Assembly: GCF_000767615.3 (NCBI RefSeq)
Contig: NZ_CP009553.3
Location: forward strand, 1,426,001-1,490,000
Source: Pandoraea pnomenusa
GTDB lineage: Bacteria > Pseudomonadota > Gammaproteobacteria > Burkholderiales > Burkholderiaceae
DNA: 64,000 nt
Direction: 5' to 3'
Part shown: piece by piece, positions 50,499 to 61,521 of the stretch
Position numbering within the stretch: the stretch's first letter is position 1
Layout: each line of letters starts with the position of its first letter
The notes under the pieces: generated by a model
Databases searched by the model: none
The model's input: only the letters and a program-made list of their open reading frames with translations
What the model was told of the DNA's origin: nothing
Program-made: the position numbers and the translations under genes

Positions 50499-50808
50499 CG
50501 TGAAACCTCCTGTCGACGAAGAACGTGCGGTGCGGAATTGCACCACGAGGTCACCGTAGACAGCGGTAGGCGTCCAAGGCAAGTCGAACCACGCGAAGGG
50601 CGCCTTCAAACACCCGCCGCCGTAACTCAAGATGCACAATCGGACGTCGTTCGGTATTCAATGGGTGACATCCTGCATGGCCCTGCCGTTGGAGGACGAT
50701 GTTGCGAGGCGCGGGCGGCGGCAGGCATTTTCGGTCTTAAGGTTGCCTTAAGGGAGCTTCTCTACGATCTGAGTCATGTCAAACGCAGTCGTCGGTAAGG
50801 AGAGACTC
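50499..50808. other. Divergent promoter region between I78-like gene and degP-type gene
   Basis: About 310 bases holding the CTTAAG direct repeat and a TACGAT hexamer near the degP side. The I78 side shows only its GGAGG ribosome site. Confidence 0.5.
50736..50752 (+). promoter_or_regulatory. PmrA/QseB-type box upstream of the degP-type gene
   Basis: CTTAAG-GTTGC-CTTAAG is an exact direct repeat with 5-base spacing, matching the PmrA/QseB consensus. A TACGAT at 50763-50768 would place the -35 at about 50740-50745, inside the box. That is the usual geometry for activation by this subfamily. Confidence 0.75.
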
Positions 50809-52353
50809 ATGAGGACCTCGAAGCTCACTCGTACGTTGGTTGCCAGCGCGGTACTCGTCGCCTTGACGGGCGGGTACGTGGCCGGTCGCCAGCATTGGCA
50901 GGCCCCGCTGGCCTCGGAAATGGTCAGCGACGCCAACGCCGCCAATCCTGCCGCGGCCCCCGCCACGGTGGCCGCCAATACCCCGAACACCGCGCCGCGC
51001 ATGCTGGTGCCGGACTTCTCGCAACTGGCGGAACAATACGGACCGGCCGTAGTCAACATCAGTGTGACGCACGATGCGAAACCTTCGGCCGCGCGCGGCT
51101 CGGCGTCGAGCCAGATGCAGATGCCCCCGGGCATGGATCAGAACGATCCGCTGTTCCAGTTTTTCCGCCACTTCTACGGCGCGCCGGGCAATGACGGCGG
51201 CGACGGTGGCGACGACAGCGCCAGTGCGATGACACGCAGTCTCGGTTCGGGCTTCATCGTGAGTCCGGACGGCTATATCCTGACCAATGCCCACGTAGTC
51301 GACGATGCGAGCCAGGTAACGGTGAAGCTCAACGACAAGCGCGAATACAAGGCGAAGGTCGTGGGCAGCGACAAGGCCAGCGATGTGGCGTTGCTCAAGA
51401 TCGCCGCGACGAATCTGCCGACCGTGAAGATCGGCGATCCGTCGAAGACGAAGGCCGGTGAATGGGTGGTGGCCATCGGCTCGCCGTATGGCTTCGACAA
51501 TACGGTGACGGCGGGTATCGTGTCGGCCAAGGCACGGGCGCTGCCGGACGAGAACTATACGCCGTTCATTCAGACGGACGTGCCGGTCAACCCGGGTAAC
51601 TCGGGCGGTCCGCTGTTCAATCTGAACGGCGAAGTGATCGGCATCAACTCGATGATTTATTCGCGCACGGGCGGCTTCCAGGGGCTGTCGTTCGCGATTC
51701 CGATCGACATGGCGATGAAGGTGAAGTCGCAGCTCCAGCAGTACGGCAAGGTGAGCCGCGGGCGCATCGGCGTGGCGATTCAGGAAGTGAACCAGTCGTT
51801 GGCGAAGTCCTTTGGCCTGCCCAAGCCCACGGGGGCTCTGGTGTCGTCGATCGACAAGCATGGTCCTGCGGCGAAGTCGGACCTCAAGCCGGGCGACGTA
51901 ATCCTGGCGGTCAATGGCACGACCATCGACGACTCGGTGCAGTTGCCGGAGAAGATCGCCGACATGCGTCCCGGACAGAAGGCGACGCTCACGGTCTGGC
52001 GCAACGGTGCGAAGCAGGACGTGAGCGTGACGGTCGGTGCGCTCAACGAAAAGAAGGACGTGGCGAGCAACGACGATTCGGCCACGCACGGGCGGCTCGG
52101 ACTCGCGGTGCGCGAACTCTCTCCCGAGGAGAAGCGCGCGGCGCAGGTGACGAACGGCCTGCTGGTGGCGCGTGCGGGCGGTCCCGCCGCACAGGCCGGG
52201 GTGGAGCCGGGCGACATCATCCTGTCGCTCAACGGCACGCCGGTGACGAGCGCCTCGCAACTGAGCGACAAGCTCAAGAAGGCTGGCAATAATGTCGCGT
52301 TGCTTGTGCAGCGCGACGGGCAACAGATTTTCATCCCGGTCGACCTCGGCTGA
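50809..52353 (+). CDS. degP: DegP/HtrA-type (Do) periplasmic serine protease
   Basis: Predicted 514 residues. Membrane-anchor or signal helix (TLVASAVLVALTGGYVAG), then a trypsin-like domain with triad His162 (TNAHVV), Asp192 (SDVALL) and Ser265 (GNSGGP), and two PDZ domains (GRIGVAIQEV... and GRLGLAVREL...). It degrades or chaperones misfolded envelope proteins, including autotransporter precursors. AAGGAGAG precedes the ATG at 50809. Likely activated by the adjacent QseBC-type system through the CTTAAG repeat. A MucD/DegQ-type name would fit equally. Confidence 0.93.
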   Translation: MRTSKLTRTLVASAVLVALTGGYVAGRQHWQAPLASEMVSDANAANPAAAPATVAANTPNTAPRMLVPDFSQLAEQYGPAVVNISVTHDAKPSAARGSASSQMQMPPGMDQNDPLFQFFRHFYGAPGNDGGDGGDDSASAMTRSLGSGFIVSPDGYILTNAHVVDDASQVTVKLNDKREYKAKVVGSDKASDVALLKIAATNLPTVKIGDPSKTKAGEWVVAIGSPYGFDNTVTAGIVSAKARALPDENYTPFIQTDVPVNPGNSGGPLFNLNGEVIGINSMIYSRTGGFQGLSFAIPIDMAMKVKSQLQQYGKVSRGRIGVAIQEVNQSLAKSFGLPKPTGALVSSIDKHGPAAKSDLKPGDVILAVNGTTIDDSVQLPEKIADMRPGQKATLTVWRNGAKQDVSVTVGALNEKKDVASNDDSATHGRLGLAVRELSPEEKRAAQVTNGLLVARAGGPAAQAGVEPGDIILSLNGTPVTSASQLSDKLKKAGNNVALLVQRDGQQIFIPVDLG

Positions 52354-52987: not shown

Positions 52988-53022
52988 GCGCCGCCATGTT
53001 TATCGTGGCGGCGCTTTTTTTT
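52988..53022 (+). terminator. Intrinsic terminator
   Basis: GCGCCGCCA and TGGCGGCGC arms with a nine-base loop and eight Ts. Ends the degP-side transcript. Confidence 0.93.
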
Positions 53023-53341: not shown

Positions 53342-56300
53342 ATGAACAAAACCTATCGTCTCGTTTTCAGCCGCAGGACAAACGCCTGGGTCGCCGTCGC
53401 CGAAATTTGCACGGGGCAGGGCAAGGCCGGCGGATCCCGGCGCGGGGCGTCATTGAAGCGGGCGAGTGTATTGCTCTGTGGGGGCGCGGCGCTATGCCTG
53501 GCGTCGCTCCCGGCACCCGCGCGGGCGAAGGCCGCCGACGGCAAGGCGCCCTGTCGTATCGACTGGAGCCTCGTCGCTCACGGATACGGCGCTGTCTCGG
53601 CCTGGGGGGATGAATGTCCCGGTCGTGGACATCATGCCGCGATGGTCGCCTTGAGGGGGGGCACGTTGGCTGCGACATATCACGACGACGCGTCGGGCGA
53701 GGGGGCTCGGGCGGGGACTGCGAGTCGGAACGATCCACGCAATACCGAGATCGGCTCGGGAGCGGTGGCGACGGGACAGGGCGCGATGGCGATCGGGGCG
53801 CAATCGAAGGCTGCCGGCGAGTACAGCATGACCCTTGGGGCGTGGAGCAAAGCTTCGGGCAAGTATGCCGCTGCCATCGGCTATGCCGCCACCGCATCAC
53901 CCATTGGATCGGTGGCCATTGGCGATTGGGCGGTGGCCGACGAGGCGGTCGGTACACCGAGCGCCACGATCAACGGTCAGACGTATGCATTTGCTGGCGG
54001 TGCGCCCATGGCAACGATGAGTATCGGCTCAAACAGAGGCTTGCGCACCATCACCCGTGTCGCGGCGGGCAGGATCAGTTCGTCGAGCACCGATGCGACG
54101 AACGGCTCCCAGTTGAACGCAACGAACGTCGCGCTCTCGAGGATCGGCACCGATATCTCCGGCTTCAAGGCGTCGATGTCGACGGGAATGAGTTCGATTT
54201 CGTCCAGCCTGAGTTCGGTGGCTTCCGGCATCAGTTCGCTCTCGACGGGCAGTGCTCGCGATCTCGAGAATGCCGTGAAGTATGACAACGCATCGCGGGA
54301 GTCCGTGTCCTTGGGCAATGCTGTATCGGCAAAGCCGGTCAAGCTGACGAATCTGGCGGACGGCAGGGACGCAAGCGATGCCGTGACGGTCAGGCAACTC
54401 AGCGTGGCCTACCGAGGCTTGACGTCGCTATCCACGAGTACCGCTTCGCTGAGCGACGGCGTGATGTCGCTGTCCACAGGGCTGAGCCATGTCACTTCAC
54501 TTGTGGCGGATACGGAAAACGTCATTCGATACGACGACGAATCGCAGGAGTCCGTGACATTCGGAAACCTGCTTTCCGTGAAACCGGTGAAGCTGACCAA
54601 CGTGGCCGACGGCGCGCGCCTGAACGACGCCGTGACGGTCCGGCAACTGAGCCAGACAAACAGCGGCGTTGCATCGCTTTCGACCGGGGCGGTCGCGACC
54701 AACAAGAGTGTGAACTCGCTCTCCACCGGGCTCAGAAAGATGGTTGGCCTGACGGCCGGCATCGAGACGTCGGTGCAGTACGACGACGACACGCAGGGAG
54801 TGGTGACGTTTGGGAGCCGCGTGTCGGCGCGGCCCGTGATTCTGACCAACGTCGCGGAGGGCGTCAACGCGACCGACGCGGTCAATGTCCGTCAGATGAG
54901 TGCGACAAACAGCCGCGTCGGCTCGCTCTCTACCGGGATGGCGGCGCTGTCGAAAAACGTGGGATCGCTCTCGACCGGCGCTGTCTCGCTAGGGCAGGGG
55001 TTAACGTCGCTCTCGACGGGAGCGACGGCCCTCTCGGATCGTGTGACGTCCCTGTCCACGGGTTTGAGCAAGGCAACGGCACTCGCCACCGACGTCGAGC
55101 GCTTTGTGCAGTACGACACCACGCAACGTGCGCGTCTGACGCTGGGGGGGACATCGGCGCGCGCACCGGTGAAGCTGGGCAACGTTGCGGATGGAGAGAC
55201 GCCGCGAGATGCCGTCAATTTCGGTCAGTTGGGTGAGGTGAGTCGCCATGTTGAATCCCTCTCGACGGGGGCAGTTGTGTTGGGGCAGGGCGTGACATCG
55301 CTTTCGACGGGGGCGGTCTCGCTGGGGCAGGGTTTGACGTCGCTTTCAACGGGAGCGGTCGTGTTGGGGCAGGGCGTGACGTCGCTTTCGACGGGAGCGG
55401 TCGTGTTGGGGCAGGGATTGACGTCGCTCTCGACGGGGGCAGTCTCGTTGTCACAGGGCGTGACGTCGCTCTCGACGGGGCTGAGCACTGTTGCCGCGCT
55501 TACGGCTGACATTTCCAGCTTCGCGAAATACGACAGCGACAGGCGCGACATGCTGACGTTGGGCGGAAAGAACCCGACGGCCCCGGTCGCCCTGACCAAC
55601 CTTGCCGACGGCGTGCGGAATTCGGATGCGGTCACCGTCAGACAGTTGGGGGTGACCAACAGCAATGTGATGCGGCTCTCGACGAGCATGGCGACGTTCG
55701 AGATCGGCGTGGGTTCGCTTTCAACGGGTGTGAAATCGATCGGCGGCACGGTCGAATCGCTGGTCTCGGAAATGGAAATCGCTGTGCAGTACGACAACGC
55801 GACGAAGACCAAGCTCCGGCTTGGCGGTCTGTCGAGAACGCCCGTCTCGTTGGGCAATGTCGCCGACGGGACCCGACCGAACGACGCCGTGAACGCGGCC
55901 CAGCTGGGAACCACGAACAGCACTGTGGCGTCGCTCTCGACGACCCTCTCCGGCCTCGTTGCTCCGGGCGCGGTGGTGCGGTCCGCCAACGGTCGAAGTC
56001 ACCGAACCCTGGTCGCCGGTGGCGTGGCAGCCACTGGAGAACACAACCAGGACGGTGCGGTCACGCTGGCCAACGTGGCCGACGGCGAACGCGCCGGCGA
56101 CGCCGTCAACTTCGCGCAATTGAGCGCCACGAACAGACACGTCGGTTCGATCTCGACGAGTATCGACAAACGGGTGGGGGCGCTTTCGACGCGGCTGAAC
56201 AAGATCGAGCGTCTTTCCCAGGGCACCGGCAATGGCGTGCAATACGACGACGGCTCCCATTCGAAGATAACGCTCGGCAACATAGTCACTTCGACGCCAG

Positions 56301-57871
56301 TCACGCTGACCAACGTGGCGGACGGCAAGAATCCGAGTGACGCCGTGACCTTTCGTCAACTGAGCACGACCAGAAGCAGCGTGGGCGTGCTCTGGAAGCG
56401 CATTGGCACGACGGACGAACAGGTGGGCTCGCTGTCTACCGGCATGACCAAGGCTGAAAAGCGGCTGACGATGCTCGAGGCAAATGCCGAGGACTATGTC
56501 GGCTACGATGGGCAGACCCGCGACACACTCACGCTTGGCGACACGGTTTCCAGGCGCTCCGTGCGGGTGCGAAACGTTTCCAAAGGCGTTGAGTTGGGCG
56601 ATGCCGTCAATTTCGCCCAGTTGAGCGAGACCAATCGCACCGTGGGGACGCTTTCCACGGGGTTGGTGCGCTCGGAACGCAAACTGAGGTCCCTCGCCGT
56701 CGATATCGAAAACAGCGCGCGATATGACGACGCCTCGCGCGGGATGTTGACGCTCGGTGGCACGGGCGCGTCCTCGCCGGTGGCGCTCGCGAACGTCGCC
56801 GACGGCACTCACCCGACCGACGCCGTCAATTTCCGGCAATTGAGCGAGACCAACCGCAATGTGACATCGCTCTCGACGGGGTTGAAGCAGATGGCGTCCG
56901 TCACGCCGGGGGACAGCCGTGCCGTGGTGTACGACGATTTGCGACGCGAGCGGGTGAAGCTGGGCGGAGCCGCGGCATCCAAGCCCGTCGCGTTGACCAA
57001 CCTCGCCGCGGGCGTCGCGTCGACCGATGCCGTCAATGTCAGTCAGTTGCAAATGACCGACAGTCGCGTGATGTCGCTCTCGACGTCGGCGTCGACGGGC
57101 ATCGGCGACATGTTGATCGCGATGAATTCGCTCGCCTCCCGCCTCAGCGCCTCTGTCGGCAGTCAGAGGCCCCCCACGGACGGCGACTCGGGCGGGGCCC
57201 TGAAGCAGACTGCGGAACCCGCGTCGAAGCAGGCGTCCTATGTCAGCGTGAACGACGGTGGCTCGTCGAAGGGCAACGCTCGCGGCGAAGGGGCGTCGGG
57301 ATCCGGCGCGATGGCCATCGGGGTGGACGCGAGCGCGGTCGGTCAGGGCAGCGCCGCGCTCGGCGCAAGGGCGGCGACGCCGGGCGCGAACGCCGTGGCG
57401 ATCGGCCATGCGGCCTCGGCCAAGGAAGCTGACGCGGTCGCGATGGGCGCGGGCGCGGTGGCCTCCGGCGCCGGTGCGGTGGCCATCGGGGCGAATGCCG
57501 TCGCGCAGGATCCGGGCACGGTGTCGTTCGGTGCTCCCGGCAGCGAGCGGCGACTCACGAACCTCGCGCCCGGCAGGCGCGCGACAGACGCGGCGACCGT
57601 GGGCCAGCTCGCGGGGGTGCAGGCAGGCGTCAATCAGGTCGCCAGGCGCGCCTATTCGGGCATCGCGGCGGCAACGGCACTCGCGATGATTCCGGAGGTG
57701 GACCCCGGCAGGCGCGTGGCACTCGGTGTCGGCTCGGCCACGTTCCAGGGGCAGGCCGCGGTGTCGATCGGCGCGTCGGTGCGCTTTACGGACAATCTCA
57801 AGGCGCGCCTGGGCGCGGGAATCAGCCGCCAGGGCAACACCTACGCCGCCGGCGTCTCGTACCAATGGTGA
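53342..57871 (+). CDS. Trimeric autotransporter adhesin (YadA-like, type Vc)
   Basis: Predicted 1509 residues. Residues 1-28 (NKTYRLVFSRRTNAWVAVAE) are a canonical ESPR, then a signal core near 41-62. YadA-type head repeats (AMAIGAQSKAAGEYSMTLGA) cover about 137-200, followed by a neck (STDATNGSQLNATN, near 249-262). A long stalk alternates neck-like modules (LTNVADG...DAVTVRQLS, more than ten) with SLSTG coiled-coil stretches. A second head (about 1320-1400) and the YadA anchor end in SYQW. It forms a trimer on the outer membrane for adhesion or aggregation. The three following genes lie on the same strand with no terminator between. Confidence 0.95.
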   Translation: MNKTYRLVFSRRTNAWVAVAEICTGQGKAGGSRRGASLKRASVLLCGGAALCLASLPAPARAKAADGKAPCRIDWSLVAHGYGAVSAWGDECPGRGHHAAMVALRGGTLAATYHDDASGEGARAGTASRNDPRNTEIGSGAVATGQGAMAIGAQSKAAGEYSMTLGAWSKASGKYAAAIGYAATASPIGSVAIGDWAVADEAVGTPSATINGQTYAFAGGAPMATMSIGSNRGLRTITRVAAGRISSSSTDATNGSQLNATNVALSRIGTDISGFKASMSTGMSSISSSLSSVASGISSLSTGSARDLENAVKYDNASRESVSLGNAVSAKPVKLTNLADGRDASDAVTVRQLSVAYRGLTSLSTSTASLSDGVMSLSTGLSHVTSLVADTENVIRYDDESQESVTFGNLLSVKPVKLTNVADGARLNDAVTVRQLSQTNSGVASLSTGAVATNKSVNSLSTGLRKMVGLTAGIETSVQYDDDTQGVVTFGSRVSARPVILTNVAEGVNATDAVNVRQMSATNSRVGSLSTGMAALSKNVGSLSTGAVSLGQGLTSLSTGATALSDRVTSLSTGLSKATALATDVERFVQYDTTQRARLTLGGTSARAPVKLGNVADGETPRDAVNFGQLGEVSRHVESLSTGAVVLGQGVTSLSTGAVSLGQGLTSLSTGAVVLGQGVTSLSTGAVVLGQGLTSLSTGAVSLSQGVTSLSTGLSTVAALTADISSFAKYDSDRRDMLTLGGKNPTAPVALTNLADGVRNSDAVTVRQLGVTNSNVMRLSTSMATFEIGVGSLSTGVKSIGGTVESLVSEMEIAVQYDNATKTKLRLGGLSRTPVSLGNVADGTRPNDAVNAAQLGTTNSTVASLSTTLSGLVAPGAVVRSANGRSHRTLVAGGVAATGEHNQDGAVTLANVADGERAGDAVNFAQLSATNRHVGSISTSIDKRVGALSTRLNKIERLSQGTGNGVQYDDGSHSKITLGNIVTSTPVTLTNVADGKNPSDAVTFRQLSTTRSSVGVLWKRIGTTDEQVGSLSTGMTKAEKRLTMLEANAEDYVGYDGQTRDTLTLGDTVSRRSVRVRNVSKGVELGDAVNFAQLSETNRTVGTLSTGLVRSERKLRSLAVDIENSARYDDASRGMLTLGGTGASSPVALANVADGTHPTDAVNFRQLSETNRNVTSLSTGLKQMASVTPGDSRAVVYDDLRRERVKLGGAAASKPVALTNLAAGVASTDAVNVSQLQMTDSRVMSLSTSASTGIGDMLIAMNSLASRLSASVGSQRPPTDGDSGGALKQTAEPASKQASYVSVNDGGSSKGNARGEGASGSGAMAIGVDASAVGQGSAALGARAATPGANAVAIGHAASAKEADAVAMGAGAVASGAGAVAIGANAVAQDPGTVSFGAPGSERRLTNLAPGRRATDAATVGQLAGVQAGVNQVARRAYSGIAAATALAMIPEVDPGRRVALGVGSATFQGQAAVSIGASVRFTDNLKARLGAGISRQGNTYAAGVSYQW
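55256..55482 (+). repeat. 42-bp tandem repeat within the adhesin stalk
   Basis: About five and a half near-identical 42-base units encoding a 14-residue repeat (SLSTGAVVLGQGVT, with A/V/S and L/V variants). Two further, more diverged copies lie near 54960-55050. The unit is a multiple of three, so slippage would change stalk length in frame. Confidence 0.85.
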
Positions 57872-57953
57872 CGCGCCCGACATCCCCCGCGCGTGCGACG
57901 CCAGCGACACGCGGCATGCGGCCGGCGGCCGAGGCGACATGGGGAGGCTGCCG

Positions 57954-59120
57954 ATGAGCGCCATTCGATCCAGACACGCGGCCGGTCGCCGGCCGGCCGT
58001 CGGCATCTCGCTGTTCGCGCGAGATGCGCAGCAGATATGGGAGAACGGCATCCATCAGAACGTGGCCTTCCTGGCCATGATGCTAAAGGCCTGCGACCGC
58101 ATCGGCCCCGTGTATTTCCTCAACGGCGGCGACGCCGGATCGCTTCCTCCCGGGCTTCAGTTGCACGACCTTGGGGTGCCGCTGGTCGCCCCGGCCGATG
58201 TCACGCACGAACTCGACGTCGTGATCCAGATGGGGGCGCAGTTGCCGCGAGAATGGCTCCGGCGGATGAAGGCGCTCGGTGCGCGGCTCATCGCCTGCTT
58301 CGTGGGCAACACCTACAGCGAGTTGTGCGAGACGCCGATCTTCGGCAAGCCTTCGGGGCATCTGTTCAACGGCAGTCCGTTCGACGAGGCGTGGATCCTG
58401 CGCAAATCGCAGTCCATCGATGCCGCGATCCTGCGTACGGTCATGCGAATTCCCGTCGTCACGATCCCGCATCTCTGGTCGCCGTACTTCATCGAGCGGC
58501 GCTGTCGCGAACTCGCCTCGCACGGCCTGCATTTCGGCTATCGGCCACGTGAGGGAAAGTGGCGTCTGTCGATTGCCGAGCCGAACATCTCGGTGGTCAA
58601 GAGCTGCCAGTATCCGATGCTCGCGGCCGACGCCTTCCATCGGCGACATCCCGGGGCGGTGGAGAAGCTCACCGTGGTCAACACCACGAACGTGCGCGAG
58701 CATCCGACGTTCGTCTATTTCGCCAACCGCCTCGATCTGGTGCGGCAACACAAGGCGGCATTCACCGATCGCATCGATCTTCCGTTGCTGCTCGCGCAGC
58801 ATACCGATGCCGTGATCTCGCACCAATGGGAGAACGCGCAGAACTACCTCTACTACGACACCCTGTATGGAGGCTATCCCTTGATCCACAACACGCGAAT
58901 GCTCGGCGACGCGGGCTACTACTACCCATCGTTCGACGCCGTTGCCGGTGCGGCGGCCCTTCGTGACGCCTGGGTACATCACGATGCCAGCCTCGCCGAT
59001 TACCGCAGGCGCGCCGACGCGGTGCTGCGCGCGGTGTCGATCGACAACCCGGACAACTGGCAGGTCATCGCTGGCCGGCTGCTTGCGCCGACGGGCAGCG
59101 AGGGAGGCGTCGATGTCTGA
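57954..59120 (+). CDS. DUF2827-like protein, copy 1 (putative glycosyltransferase)
   Basis: Predicted 388-residue soluble protein. GGGAGG six bases before the ATG fixes the start. Family features are VGISLFARDAQQIWENGIHQN at the N-terminus, AEPNISVVKSCQYPML in the middle, and WENAQNYLYYDTLYGGYPLI followed by HNTRMLGDAGYYYPSFD. The last segment looks like a GT-B donor-binding site (acidic residue, Gly, Pro, then an aromatic/Asp turn); this copy has Asp where the others have Glu. I recognise it as DUF2827-like by memory, not search. It starts 82 bases after the adhesin stop with no terminator, suggesting one operon. Confidence 0.75.
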   Translation: MSAIRSRHAAGRRPAVGISLFARDAQQIWENGIHQNVAFLAMMLKACDRIGPVYFLNGGDAGSLPPGLQLHDLGVPLVAPADVTHELDVVIQMGAQLPREWLRRMKALGARLIACFVGNTYSELCETPIFGKPSGHLFNGSPFDEAWILRKSQSIDAAILRTVMRIPVVTIPHLWSPYFIERRCRELASHGLHFGYRPREGKWRLSIAEPNISVVKSCQYPMLAADAFHRRHPGAVEKLTVVNTTNVREHPTFVYFANRLDLVRQHKAAFTDRIDLPLLLAQHTDAVISHQWENAQNYLYYDTLYGGYPLIHNTRMLGDAGYYYPSFDAVAGAAALRDAWVHHDASLADYRRRADAVLRAVSIDNPDNWQVIAGRLLAPTGSEGGVDV

Positions 59121-60270
59121 GCGATCGAACCGCGCCGCGATGGACCGGCGCCTTGTGGTCGGCGTGTCGCTCTTCGTCAAGGGAAGCGGACAGTCGTTGT
59201 GGGAGAACGGCATCTTCCAGAACTGCCTGCTGCTGGTGATGCTGCTGCGCCGTTCGCCGTACGTGGCCGACGCCGTGATGGTCAACGGCGGCAACGCCGC
59301 GACGCCATCGCCCGACCTCATGCTGGAGGCCACGAACATCCCCCTGATCACGCTCGAGGCGGCGATGGCGCGCTGCGACGTGATGATCGAAATGAGCGCG
59401 CAACTCGACGTGGCGTGGATTGCCGCATTCCGCGAACGGGGCGGCAAGGTCGTGACGATGCGCGTGGGCAACGATTACGTGATCGACATCGAGCGCGCGA
59501 TGTTCGGCAAGCCCCCGGGGTTTCTCTTCTCCGGGGCGACCTACGACGGTGTCTGGACGATTCCGGAGTTTGGCGTCACCTGCCGGAGCTACTTCGAATG
59601 CGCGTTGCGCACACCGGTGACGATCGTGCCCCACATCTGGCATCCGATGCTCTTCGACCGCGCACGGGCCGCGTTGGGCGAACAGGAGGCGTTCGGCTAC
59701 CGACCCGGACGCTCGCGCTGGCGCGTGGCGATCTTCGAGCCGAACATCTGCATGGTCAAAACCTGCGTGATACCCATGCTCGCGACCGAACTGGCCTATC
59801 GCGCCGAACCGTCGTTTGCCGAGAGCGTGCTGGTGTGCAACACGCTGCATCTCAAGGAGCACGCCACATTCGTGCATTTCGCGCGCAGCCTCGACATCGT
59901 GGATCACGGCGTGGCGTCGTTTCAGGGGCGCTTCGCGCTCTTCGAGTTCATGTCGCGCCATGGCGACGCCGTGGTGTCGCACACGTGGGAGAACGCACAG
60001 AACTACCTCTATTACGAGTTGCTGTACGGCGGCTATCCACTGGTTCACAACTCGCCCTTCCTGGGCAAGTGCGGCTATTTCTATCCGGGGTTCGATTGCG
60101 AGGAAGGGGCACGCCGGTTGCTCGAGGCGTTTCGCACGCATGACGACAATCTCGAGCAGTACCGCCGGGACGCCCGCCAGTTGCTCGACGACGTCAGCAT
60201 CGAGAACGCCGCGAACGTGAGCGCGTACAGCGAAGCCATTGCAGCGCTGTACCGGCCCGCCGGGGCCTGA
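59113..60270 (+). CDS. DUF2827-like protein, copy 2 (putative glycosyltransferase)
   Basis: Predicted 385 residues. VVGVSLFVKGSGQSLWENGI, FEPNICMVKTCVIPML and WENAQNYLYYELLYGGYPLV followed by HNSPFLGKCGYFYPGFD align closely with copy 1. Glu in YYELLYGG fits the GT-B donor-ribose Glu. The ATG overlaps the end of copy 1 by eight bases with GGGAGG five bases upstream, so translation is coupled. No membrane or signal segment: a cytoplasmic enzyme would meet the adhesin before secretion. Confidence 0.75.
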   Translation: MSERSNRAAMDRRLVVGVSLFVKGSGQSLWENGIFQNCLLLVMLLRRSPYVADAVMVNGGNAATPSPDLMLEATNIPLITLEAAMARCDVMIEMSAQLDVAWIAAFRERGGKVVTMRVGNDYVIDIERAMFGKPPGFLFSGATYDGVWTIPEFGVTCRSYFECALRTPVTIVPHIWHPMLFDRARAALGEQEAFGYRPGRSRWRVAIFEPNICMVKTCVIPMLATELAYRAEPSFAESVLVCNTLHLKEHATFVHFARSLDIVDHGVASFQGRFALFEFMSRHGDAVVSHTWENAQNYLYYELLYGGYPLVHNSPFLGKCGYFYPGFDCEEGARRLLEAFRTHDDNLEQYRRDARQLLDDVSIENAANVSAYSEAIAALYRPAGA

Positions 60271-60348
60271 GAAGCGCAGCGCGCGGCGTGCGATCGACGA
60301 CGTATCGCAACTTCACGACGGCATCGACCGCCCGCACGGCGGCAGGGA

Positions 60349-60396
60349 GTGACAAACGTGACAAACGTGGCAAATCTGGCAAACCTGGAAAACGCG
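60349..60396 (+). repeat. 9-bp degenerate repeat at the 5' end of DUF2827-like copy 3
   Basis: gtgacaaac, gtgacaaac, gtggcaaat, ctggcaaac, ctggaaaac: five units. Read on the other strand they are gtttgtcac/gtttgccac, the same family as the repeat at 870-922. Each of the first three contains a possible GTG start. Confidence 0.7.
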
Positions 60397-61521
60397 TCCA
60401 GGCTTCGCATCGGAATCACCATCGGCCTGCATCGTGCCGACGAGACGATCTGGAACAACGGCATCAAGCAGAACGCGATTTTTCTGGCCGACGCGCTCGC
60501 GCGCTGTGCGTCGGTGTACAGCGTGGCGCTGCTCAACACGACACCGGTGCCGCTCGGCGACACGCTGCCATGGTCGTTGACACGCTTCCCGACGCTGCCG
60601 TTCGAGGCGGCCAAGGACGACATCGATCTGCTGATCGAGCTCGGCGGCCAGATCGACGCCGATCAGACCGGCTACCTGAAGGCGCGCGGCGTGCGTCTGG
60701 TGTCGTATTGCTGTGGATCGGAGTATCTGCTCGCGGCGCAGGCGATGCTCTTCGATCGGCCTGCGTGGGGCGCCGGGTTGTTCGTCAATCAGCGTTATGA
60801 CGCGATCTGGATGGTGCCGCAGGTCGCCGATGCGAACCGGCCGTTCTTCGAGGTGCTGCGACGCCAACGCGCGCATGCCGTGCCGTTCGTGTGGAGTCCG
60901 GTCTTCCTCGAGGCGTGCGCGAGCGCACAGCCTTGCGGGGGCGCCTACGCGCCGCACACCGAGCCCCGTCGCCTGAGCGTCATGGAGCCCAACGTCGACA
61001 TCGTCAAGTTCTGTCTCTATCCGATCCTGATCGCCGAGCTGGCGTATCGCGAGCGGCCAGGCGTCATCGCACTGTTGCAGGTCACCAATGCACAGCGACT
61101 GGCCGAGCACAGCCCGGACTTCGTGGCACTCATGCATCAGCTGGATATCGTGCGCGAGCGCAAGGCGACTTTCCTCCCGCGCTACGACACACCGACGTTT
61201 CTGGCCGAATACACCGACGTGGTGATCTCGCACCAGATGGCCAATCCGCTCAACTACTTCTATCTGGAAGTGTGCTGGCAAGGCTACGCGCTGATTCATA
61301 ACGCGGGCCTGTGCAGCGACCTCGGCTACTACTACCAGGGGAACGATCTCGGCGCGGGCGCCCGCCGGCTGGTCGAGGCGCTCGACCGGCACGACGCGGG
61401 TCTTGCCGCCTATCGCTTCGCGCAGCGGCAACAGATTCGGCGATACCTTCCCGAGAACACGGAGGTCGTGCGGACCTACGAAGCCTTGCTCGGCGAAGTC
61501 ATGGCCGGACCGATCCGCTGA
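60349..61521 (+). CDS. DUF2827-like protein, copy 3 (putative glycosyltransferase)
   Basis: Predicted 390 residues. It shares the ITIGLHRADETIWNNGIKQN start, MEPNVDIVKFCLYPILIAEL and the C-terminal QMANPLNYFYLEVCWQGYAL followed by IHNAGLCSDLGYYYQGND, but is the most diverged: WENAQNYLYY is replaced by MANPLNYFYLE. The start is a GTG; three in-frame GTGs (60349, 60358, 60367) lie within 9-base repeats, and AGGGA at 60344-60348 best suits 60358. A 78-base gap separates it from copy 2. Confidence 0.72.
   Translation: MTNVTNVANLANLENASRLRIGITIGLHRADETIWNNGIKQNAIFLADALARCASVYSVALLNTTPVPLGDTLPWSLTRFPTLPFEAAKDDIDLLIELGGQIDADQTGYLKARGVRLVSYCCGSEYLLAAQAMLFDRPAWGAGLFVNQRYDAIWMVPQVADANRPFFEVLRRQRAHAVPFVWSPVFLEACASAQPCGGAYAPHTEPRRLSVMEPNVDIVKFCLYPILIAELAYRERPGVIALLQVTNAQRLAEHSPDFVALMHQLDIVRERKATFLPRYDTPTFLAEYTDVVISHQMANPLNYFYLEVCWQGYALIHNAGLCSDLGYYYQGNDLGAGARRLVEALDRHDAGLAAYRFAQRQQIRRYLPENTEVVRTYEALLGEVMAGPIR

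What the first reader, a model, noticed from the sequence alone, without database searches (positions are those of the whole stretch)
53342..61521. Trimeric adhesin followed by three tandem DUF2827-like genes: candidate adhesin glycosylation system
The adhesin (53342-57871) is followed within 82 bases, with no terminator, by three paralogous soluble proteins, two of them overlapping. Their C-terminal segments look like GT-B donor sites, and the adhesin stalk is packed with Ser/Thr-rich SLSTG modules that could be acceptors. Established: some autotransporters (AIDA-I, TibA) are heptosylated in the cytoplasm by dedicated enzymes encoded next to them, using ADP-heptose; this organism has waaF and so makes that sugar. 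Inference: the three proteins modify this adhesin, perhaps sequentially. I do not know of a described system of this make-up.
Basis: partly seen in the sequence, partly recalled or inferred. Interest (0 to 1): 0.85.

Follow-up and report, generated by a model that had tools for sequence, protein, structure and literature searches.

The report
Adhesin-linked DUF2827 glycosyltransferase triplet
Behind a bacterial surface-fibre gene sit three related, uncharacterised proteins built like sugar-adding enzymes; their relatives travel with the same kind of Ser/Thr-rich fibre in many bacteria, which points to an unrecognised way of sugar-coating bacterial adhesins.

Summary

The adhesin link is general. 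Of 80 DUF2827 loci, 68 show TAA signatures in the fetched DNA; all 80 have an A-type gene upstream of a B-type gene. In 300 genomes of the order, all 6 with DUF2827 are among the 29 with a YadA anchor; in 5 of 6 the genes are neighbours.

Best reading: cytoplasmic O-glycosyltransferases dedicated to SLST-type TAA stalks, separate from the NGT and BAHT classes. The heptose idea is not supported: these are not BAHTs by sequence, and the genome has a separate BAHT elsewhere. Donor, linkage and division of labour are unknown; no glycan has been shown.

The parts
53342..57871 (+). Trimeric autotransporter adhesin, presumed acceptor (ESPR, YadA head, stalk, anchor)
   Evidence: Pfam
54089..57121 (+). 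Stalk (residues 250-1260) with 20 SLST modules, predicted acceptor region
   Evidence: role inferred
57954..59120 (+). DUF2827 paralogue 1, A type (388 aa)
   Evidence: PF10933; tree; not modelled
59113..60270 (+). DUF2827 paralogue 2, B type (385 aa), GT-B model
   Evidence: PF10933; model
60349..61521 (+). DUF2827 paralogue 3, C type (390 aa), GT-B model
   Evidence: PF10933; model
59737..59760 (+). EPNxxxxK motif of paralogue 2 (residues 209-216), likely donor-phosphate site
   Evidence: E209, N211, K216 in 256 of 256 family sequences, P210 in 254; role by recalled analogy with GT4 enzymes
59992..60018 (+). N-x7-E motif of paralogue 2 (residues 294-302), at the place of the GT4 E-x7-E motif
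   Evidence: N294 in 249 of 256, E or D at 302 in 256 of 256; placement from a weak profile alignment
52988..53014 (+). Terminator-like hairpin upstream of the adhesin, likely edge of the transcription unit

Best explanation
The three DUF2827 proteins are soluble GT-B glycosyltransferases, co-transcribed with the adhesin, that act on its stalk in the cytoplasm before export. They move sugar from a nucleotide-sugar donor to Ser/Thr of the repeated SLST modules, giving a densely sugar-coated coiled-coil fibre. A (paralogue 1) and B (paralogue 2) form the constant core, as a complex or as initiating and extending enzymes; C (paralogue 3) is an optional further transferase. Shown: domains, GT-B models of B and C, conserved A-B order, co-occurrence with TAAs, restriction of SLST-rich TAAs to DUF2827 genomes in one sample. 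Inferred: catalysis, co-transcription, acceptor residues, cytoplasmic site, division of labour. Unknown: donor and linkage.
Against: No glycan, activity or donor is shown. Twelve of 80 loci lack a TAA signature, 8 of them not explained by contig ends. G005 and G012 have a DUF2827 gene and no YadA anchor. G043 and three Collimonas loci have the triplet with no TAA beside it. G149 has 1 SLST only. 23 of 54 DUF2827 genomes lack the LSTSTSTG pattern, this one included, and G461 and G483 have it without DUF2827. The profile link to GT4 sequences is weak. Shared ancestry of cassette and stalk could mimic part of the correlation.
Confidence: 0.68

Rival explanations
1. The DUF2827 proteins are glycosyltransferases, but their acceptor is another surface molecule (polysaccharide, lipid or other secreted protein) that works together with the adhesin.
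For: DUF2827 genes occur without a neighbouring TAA: Collimonas-type loci beside a MORN and Pro/Thr-rich secreted protein, a C1-type gene near type III secretion genes in G012, Snodgrassella-type loci.
Against: The stalk sequence itself tracks with DUF2827, also for TAAs far from the genes.
Confidence: 0.12
2. The DUF2827 proteins are glycosyltransferase-derived chaperones or adaptors that no longer catalyse; they bind Ser/Thr-rich stalks and keep them export-competent.
For: Tandem paralogues of constant order suggest a complex; the first Glu of the GT4 motif is Asn here.
Against: Polar residues at the presumed donor site are nearly invariant in all subtypes, as expected of enzymes.
Confidence: 0.1
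3. No functional tie: the SLST adhesin and the DUF2827 genes only hitch-hike as one mobile cassette.
For: The set lies on conjugative plasmids and is patchy in the genus (3 of 32 genomes with any DUF2827).
Against: The link holds with the TAA upstream, divergent or downstream and for SLST-rich TAAs elsewhere in G000, G043 and G319.
Confidence: 0.06
4. They are heptosyltransferases of the AAH/TibC kind, using ADP-heptose.
For: BAHT genes often lie next to autotransporters, also in Burkholderia (PMC4358343, passages).
Against: No TIGR04414 or other NCBIfam match at E<=1; the genome's own BAHT (532 bits) is elsewhere. The fold alone does not fix the donor, so heptose as donor is not excluded.
Confidence: 0.04

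Closest known systems
BAHT family (AAH, TibC, BimC; TIGR04414)
   Same: Dedicated cytoplasmic O-glycosyltransferases encoded beside autotransporters (PMC4358343, passages; BimC only from the listing of PMC6439308)
   Different: No sequence match; here tandem paralogues; TibC has an N-terminal beta-barrel, a thumb and an iron finger (PMC4358343, passages), which PF10933 covering almost the whole protein leaves no room for (inference)
NGT / HMW1C enzymes (GT41)
   Same: Cytoplasmic glycosylation of type V proteins, including TAAs of Kingella and Aggregatibacter (PMC8151025, passages, and its reference list)
   Different: They modify Asn in NX(S/T); here Ser/Thr modules track with the enzymes and NX(S/T) does not differ significantly (P 0.09); no Pfam match
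SdgB and the Gtf enzymes of serine-rich-repeat adhesins (Gram-positive)
   Different: Unrelated by sequence in the searches made; different adhesins, secretion route and bacteria
SLST repeats of Burkholderia adhesins (BoaA, BoaB, BMA1027, BCAM2418)
   Same: Same repeat motif, in print since 2010 (PMC2955633, PMC4021183, PMC7142374, passages); PMC7142374 suggests that the Ser/Thr-rich repeats may be O-glycosylated
   Different: In the passages seen, no enzyme is named and DUF2827 is not mentioned

Membership tests
PF10933 (DUF2827) | Profile match over the curated cut-off along most of the model | tested here: met
   439-512 bits against a cut-off of 25
GT-B glycosyltransferase fold | Two Rossmann-like domains with the GT-B arrangement | tested here: met
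GT4 (Pfam Glycos_transf_1 and kin) | Sequence-profile match | tested here: not met
   Only PF10933 over its cut-off; hhalign to seven GT4 enzymes of the genome, probability 0.9 %
GT4 (Pfam Glycos_transf_1 and kin) | Retaining transfer from a nucleotide sugar | not testable with these tools
   Needs an assay
BAHT (TIGR04414) | Profile match over the cut-off | tested here: not met
   No NCBIfam match at E<=1 for the three proteins
BAHT (TIGR04414) | Iron-finger motif and dodecamer | not tested
   No call made
NGT / HMW1C (GT41) | Profile match | tested here: not met
   No such Pfam or NCBIfam match at E<=1
Trimeric autotransporter adhesins | ESPR/signal, YadA head, stalk and YadA anchor | tested here: met
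   All over cut-off in 53342-57871

The most novel reading that the evidence does not exclude
DUF2827 is a third class of cytoplasmic type V secretion glycosyltransferases, dedicated to trimeric autotransporters. A conserved A-B pair, usually with C, decorates SLST-type coiled-coil repeats with O-glycans, turning long fibres into sugar-coated rods, and moves with its adhesin on conjugative plasmids. This would explain the SLST repeats of Burkholderia adhesins in print since 2010.
Probability: 0.6. Interest if true: 0.88.

Novelty: new variant of a known kind. Interest (0 to 1): 0.78.

Why it matters
It would give a function to a family of over a thousand proteins (1189 relatives), add a third enzyme class to the two named in a 2021 review of type V secretion (NGT and BAHT; PMC8151025, passages), and explain Ser/Thr-rich repeats that were described in Burkholderia adhesins without a known cause. 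It predicts a short acceptor module and an enzyme set small enough to rebuild in vitro, so it can be tested directly.

Tried and rejected
A profile search of PDB sequences found nothing at E<=10. hhalign against seven GT4 enzymes of the genome gave probability 0.9 %; a first attempt used wrong reading frames and is void. A first anchor profile drifted onto stalk and head repeats and was replaced by a C-terminal-only profile; that one still missed the TAAs of G149 and G314, so the full count used the Pfam anchor coordinates. [quoted passage not shown] PglL was not searched for here. NX(S/T) sequons do not differ significantly. Around the BAHT of this genome I recognised no autotransporter, but only three frames there were scanned with Pfam (other frames by eye). 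Heptosyltransferases were not among the 50 PDB entries shown; that is no proof of absence. In the family sample the reversed control pattern reached 5 or 6 hits in a few genomes (for example G472, G482, G492), so the cut of 5, chosen after seeing the counts, touches noise; at 10 or more, 32 genomes remain, 30 of them with DUF2827.

Papers: 'DUF2827' occurs in 1 paper, a cysteine database, seen only in the listing. Searches for TAA glycosyltransferases, SLST, Burkholderia glycoproteome with TAAs and Pandoraea adhesins showed no DUF2827 system in their listings, which show at most 20 papers each. PMC6439308, PMC8423747 and PMC8143609 were seen only in listings. PMC3404963 and PMC10224339 (passages) treat Burkholderia TAAs; the passages shown name no such enzymes.

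Full report
WHAT IS THERE. Bases 53342-57871 encode a 1509-residue trimeric autotransporter adhesin (TAA) with an extended signal peptide, head repeats, 13 stalk stretches and a YadA anchor. After 82 bases come three genes that match PF10933 (DUF2827): 57954-59120, 59113-60270 (8-base overlap) and 60349-61521 (GTG start, 78-base gap), with ribosome-binding-like sequences at each start. A strong terminator-like hairpin lies before the adhesin (52988-53014) and none was found in the gaps. The genome, 5.39 Mb in one contig, has exactly three DUF2827 matches, these, and three YadA anchors. The organism is probably a Pandoraea (inference: the nearest named homologue of paralogue 2 is from a Pandoraea sp., 77 %).

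THE FAMILY AND ITS PARTNERS. A search found 1189 relatives. The genome-contig scan found 223 encoding stretches, and the best 80 became loci; the patterns came from an alignment dominated by B-type proteins, so loci without a B type would be missed. In all 80 an A-type gene lies upstream of a B-type gene on the same strand: in 77 their ends are within 1250 bases, in L028, L037 and L049 within 2.6 kb; in L055 the A gene is cut by the contig end. At least one C type is in 61 of 80. A tree of 256 sequences puts the window's three genes in the A, B and C groups; seven partial ORFs were dropped. TAA signatures (C-terminal anchor or ESPR) lie in the fetched DNA of 68 of 80 loci: 55 upstream on the same strand, 6 divergent, 7 downstream. 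Of the 12 without, L043, L048, L050 and L055 end close to the genes; L060, L063, L066, L070, L072, L078, L083 and L088 are not so explained. In the plasmid collection 18 records have a match; on the three conjugative plasmids that I opened (B. ambifaria pBMC401 and B21-006, B. glumae p81s3p) a TAA gene, an OmpA gene and two or three DUF2827 genes follow each other, with small genes between (in p81s3p the TAA is annotated as hypothetical and was recognised by the anchor profile).

SAMPLE NOT CHOSEN BY DUF2827. In 300 genomes spread over the order, DUF2827 occurs in 6 and YadA anchors in 29; all 6 are among the 29 (P 4.9e-7 if independent). In 5 of the 6 an anchor and a DUF2827 gene lie within about 2.4 kb; the exception is G043. 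In the same genus G024, G028 and G030 have YadA anchors without DUF2827, and their four TAAs contain no SLST; G005 and G012 have one DUF2827 gene each and no YadA anchor. In G012 that gene, of the C1 group, lies near OrgA/MxiK and transglycosylase genes.

ACCEPTOR. In a first count 62 of 62 TAAs at DUF2827 loci (70 found, 8 shorter than 300 aa dropped) had at least two SLST; median Ser+Thr was 42 % against 20 % in 35 other TAAs, and NX(S/T) did not differ significantly (P 0.09). The complete count over all 84 anchors: 10 TAAs have three or more SLST, all 10 in DUF2827 genomes; the 23 TAA genomes without DUF2827 have at most one per TAA; 5 of the 6 with DUF2827 have such a TAA (Fisher 5e-5). 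The sixth, G149, has one SLST but a stalk with 43 % Ser/Thr built on VST/LST. SLST-rich TAAs also lie away from the DUF2827 genes in G000, G043 and G319, which argues against mere linkage; G043, the one genome without adjacency, has three. In a family sample of 200 genomes (it shares members with the first, for example G000, G289 and G319), a DNA pattern for LSTSTSTG occurs five or more times in 33 genomes, 31 with DUF2827: 31 of 54 against 2 of 146 (Fisher 2e-19). Motif and cut were chosen after seeing data, the reversed control pattern reaches 5 or 6 in a few genomes, and 23 of 54 DUF2827 genomes, this one included, fall below the cut. The two exceptions are G461, whose TAA lies in two pieces around frames that look transposase-like by eye, and G483, whose contig numbers reach C423. 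None of these tests is corrected for phylogeny.

MECHANISM. Most likely the adhesin is modified in the cytoplasm, as NGT and BAHT substrates are: by eye the DUF2827 proteins have no signal peptide, and their fold is that of nucleotide-sugar enzymes (inference). Ser/Thr of SLST modules would be the acceptors. A and B may form a complex or act in turn; C would add to it. The donor is unknown. ADP-heptose is possible but not favoured, since the proteins are not BAHTs by sequence and the genome carries a BAHT elsewhere.

KNOWN WORK. A 2021 review names two classes of cytoplasmic type V glycosyltransferases (PMC8151025, passages). SLST repeats of Burkholderia adhesins are in print (PMC2955633, PMC4021183), and one paper suggests that such repeats may be O-glycosylated (PMC7142374) (passages). 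No paper in the listings seen links them to DUF2827.

VERDICT.

Noticed in passing
L106 8694-10049 (G000:C1:1221711-1222835), outside the window: A full BAHT-type heptosyltransferase (TIGR04414, 532 bits) in the same genome with no autotransporter recognised beside it; its substrate is open and could even be one of the three TAAs.
   Followed up: partly
L109 8945-10081 (G012), L110 8839-9975 (G005): Single C1-group DUF2827 genes in two same-genus genomes without any YadA anchor, near a transglycosylase gene and, in G012, an OrgA/MxiK gene.
   Followed up: partly
L111 8795-10572 (G043), L070 5579-7618: Collimonas-type C-A-B DUF2827 triplets sit behind a MORN-repeat, Pro/Thr-rich, apparently secreted protein and a second small secreted-looking protein instead of a TAA: a possible other acceptor.
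   Followed up: partly
L200 7783-15274 (G461): An SLST-rich TAA in a genome without DUF2827 lies in two pieces with transposase-like frames (by eye) between them.
   Followed up: partly
L063 8833-11125, L060 1439-3731: Snodgrassella alvi and a Neisseriaceae MAG share an A-B DUF2827 pair in the same gene context with no TAA signature in the fetched DNA.
   Followed up: partly
window 50776-52353: A DegP/HtrA-like protease gene (Trypsin_2 and two PDZ domains) about 1 kb upstream of the adhesin on the same strand, beyond the terminator-like hairpin.
   Followed up: no
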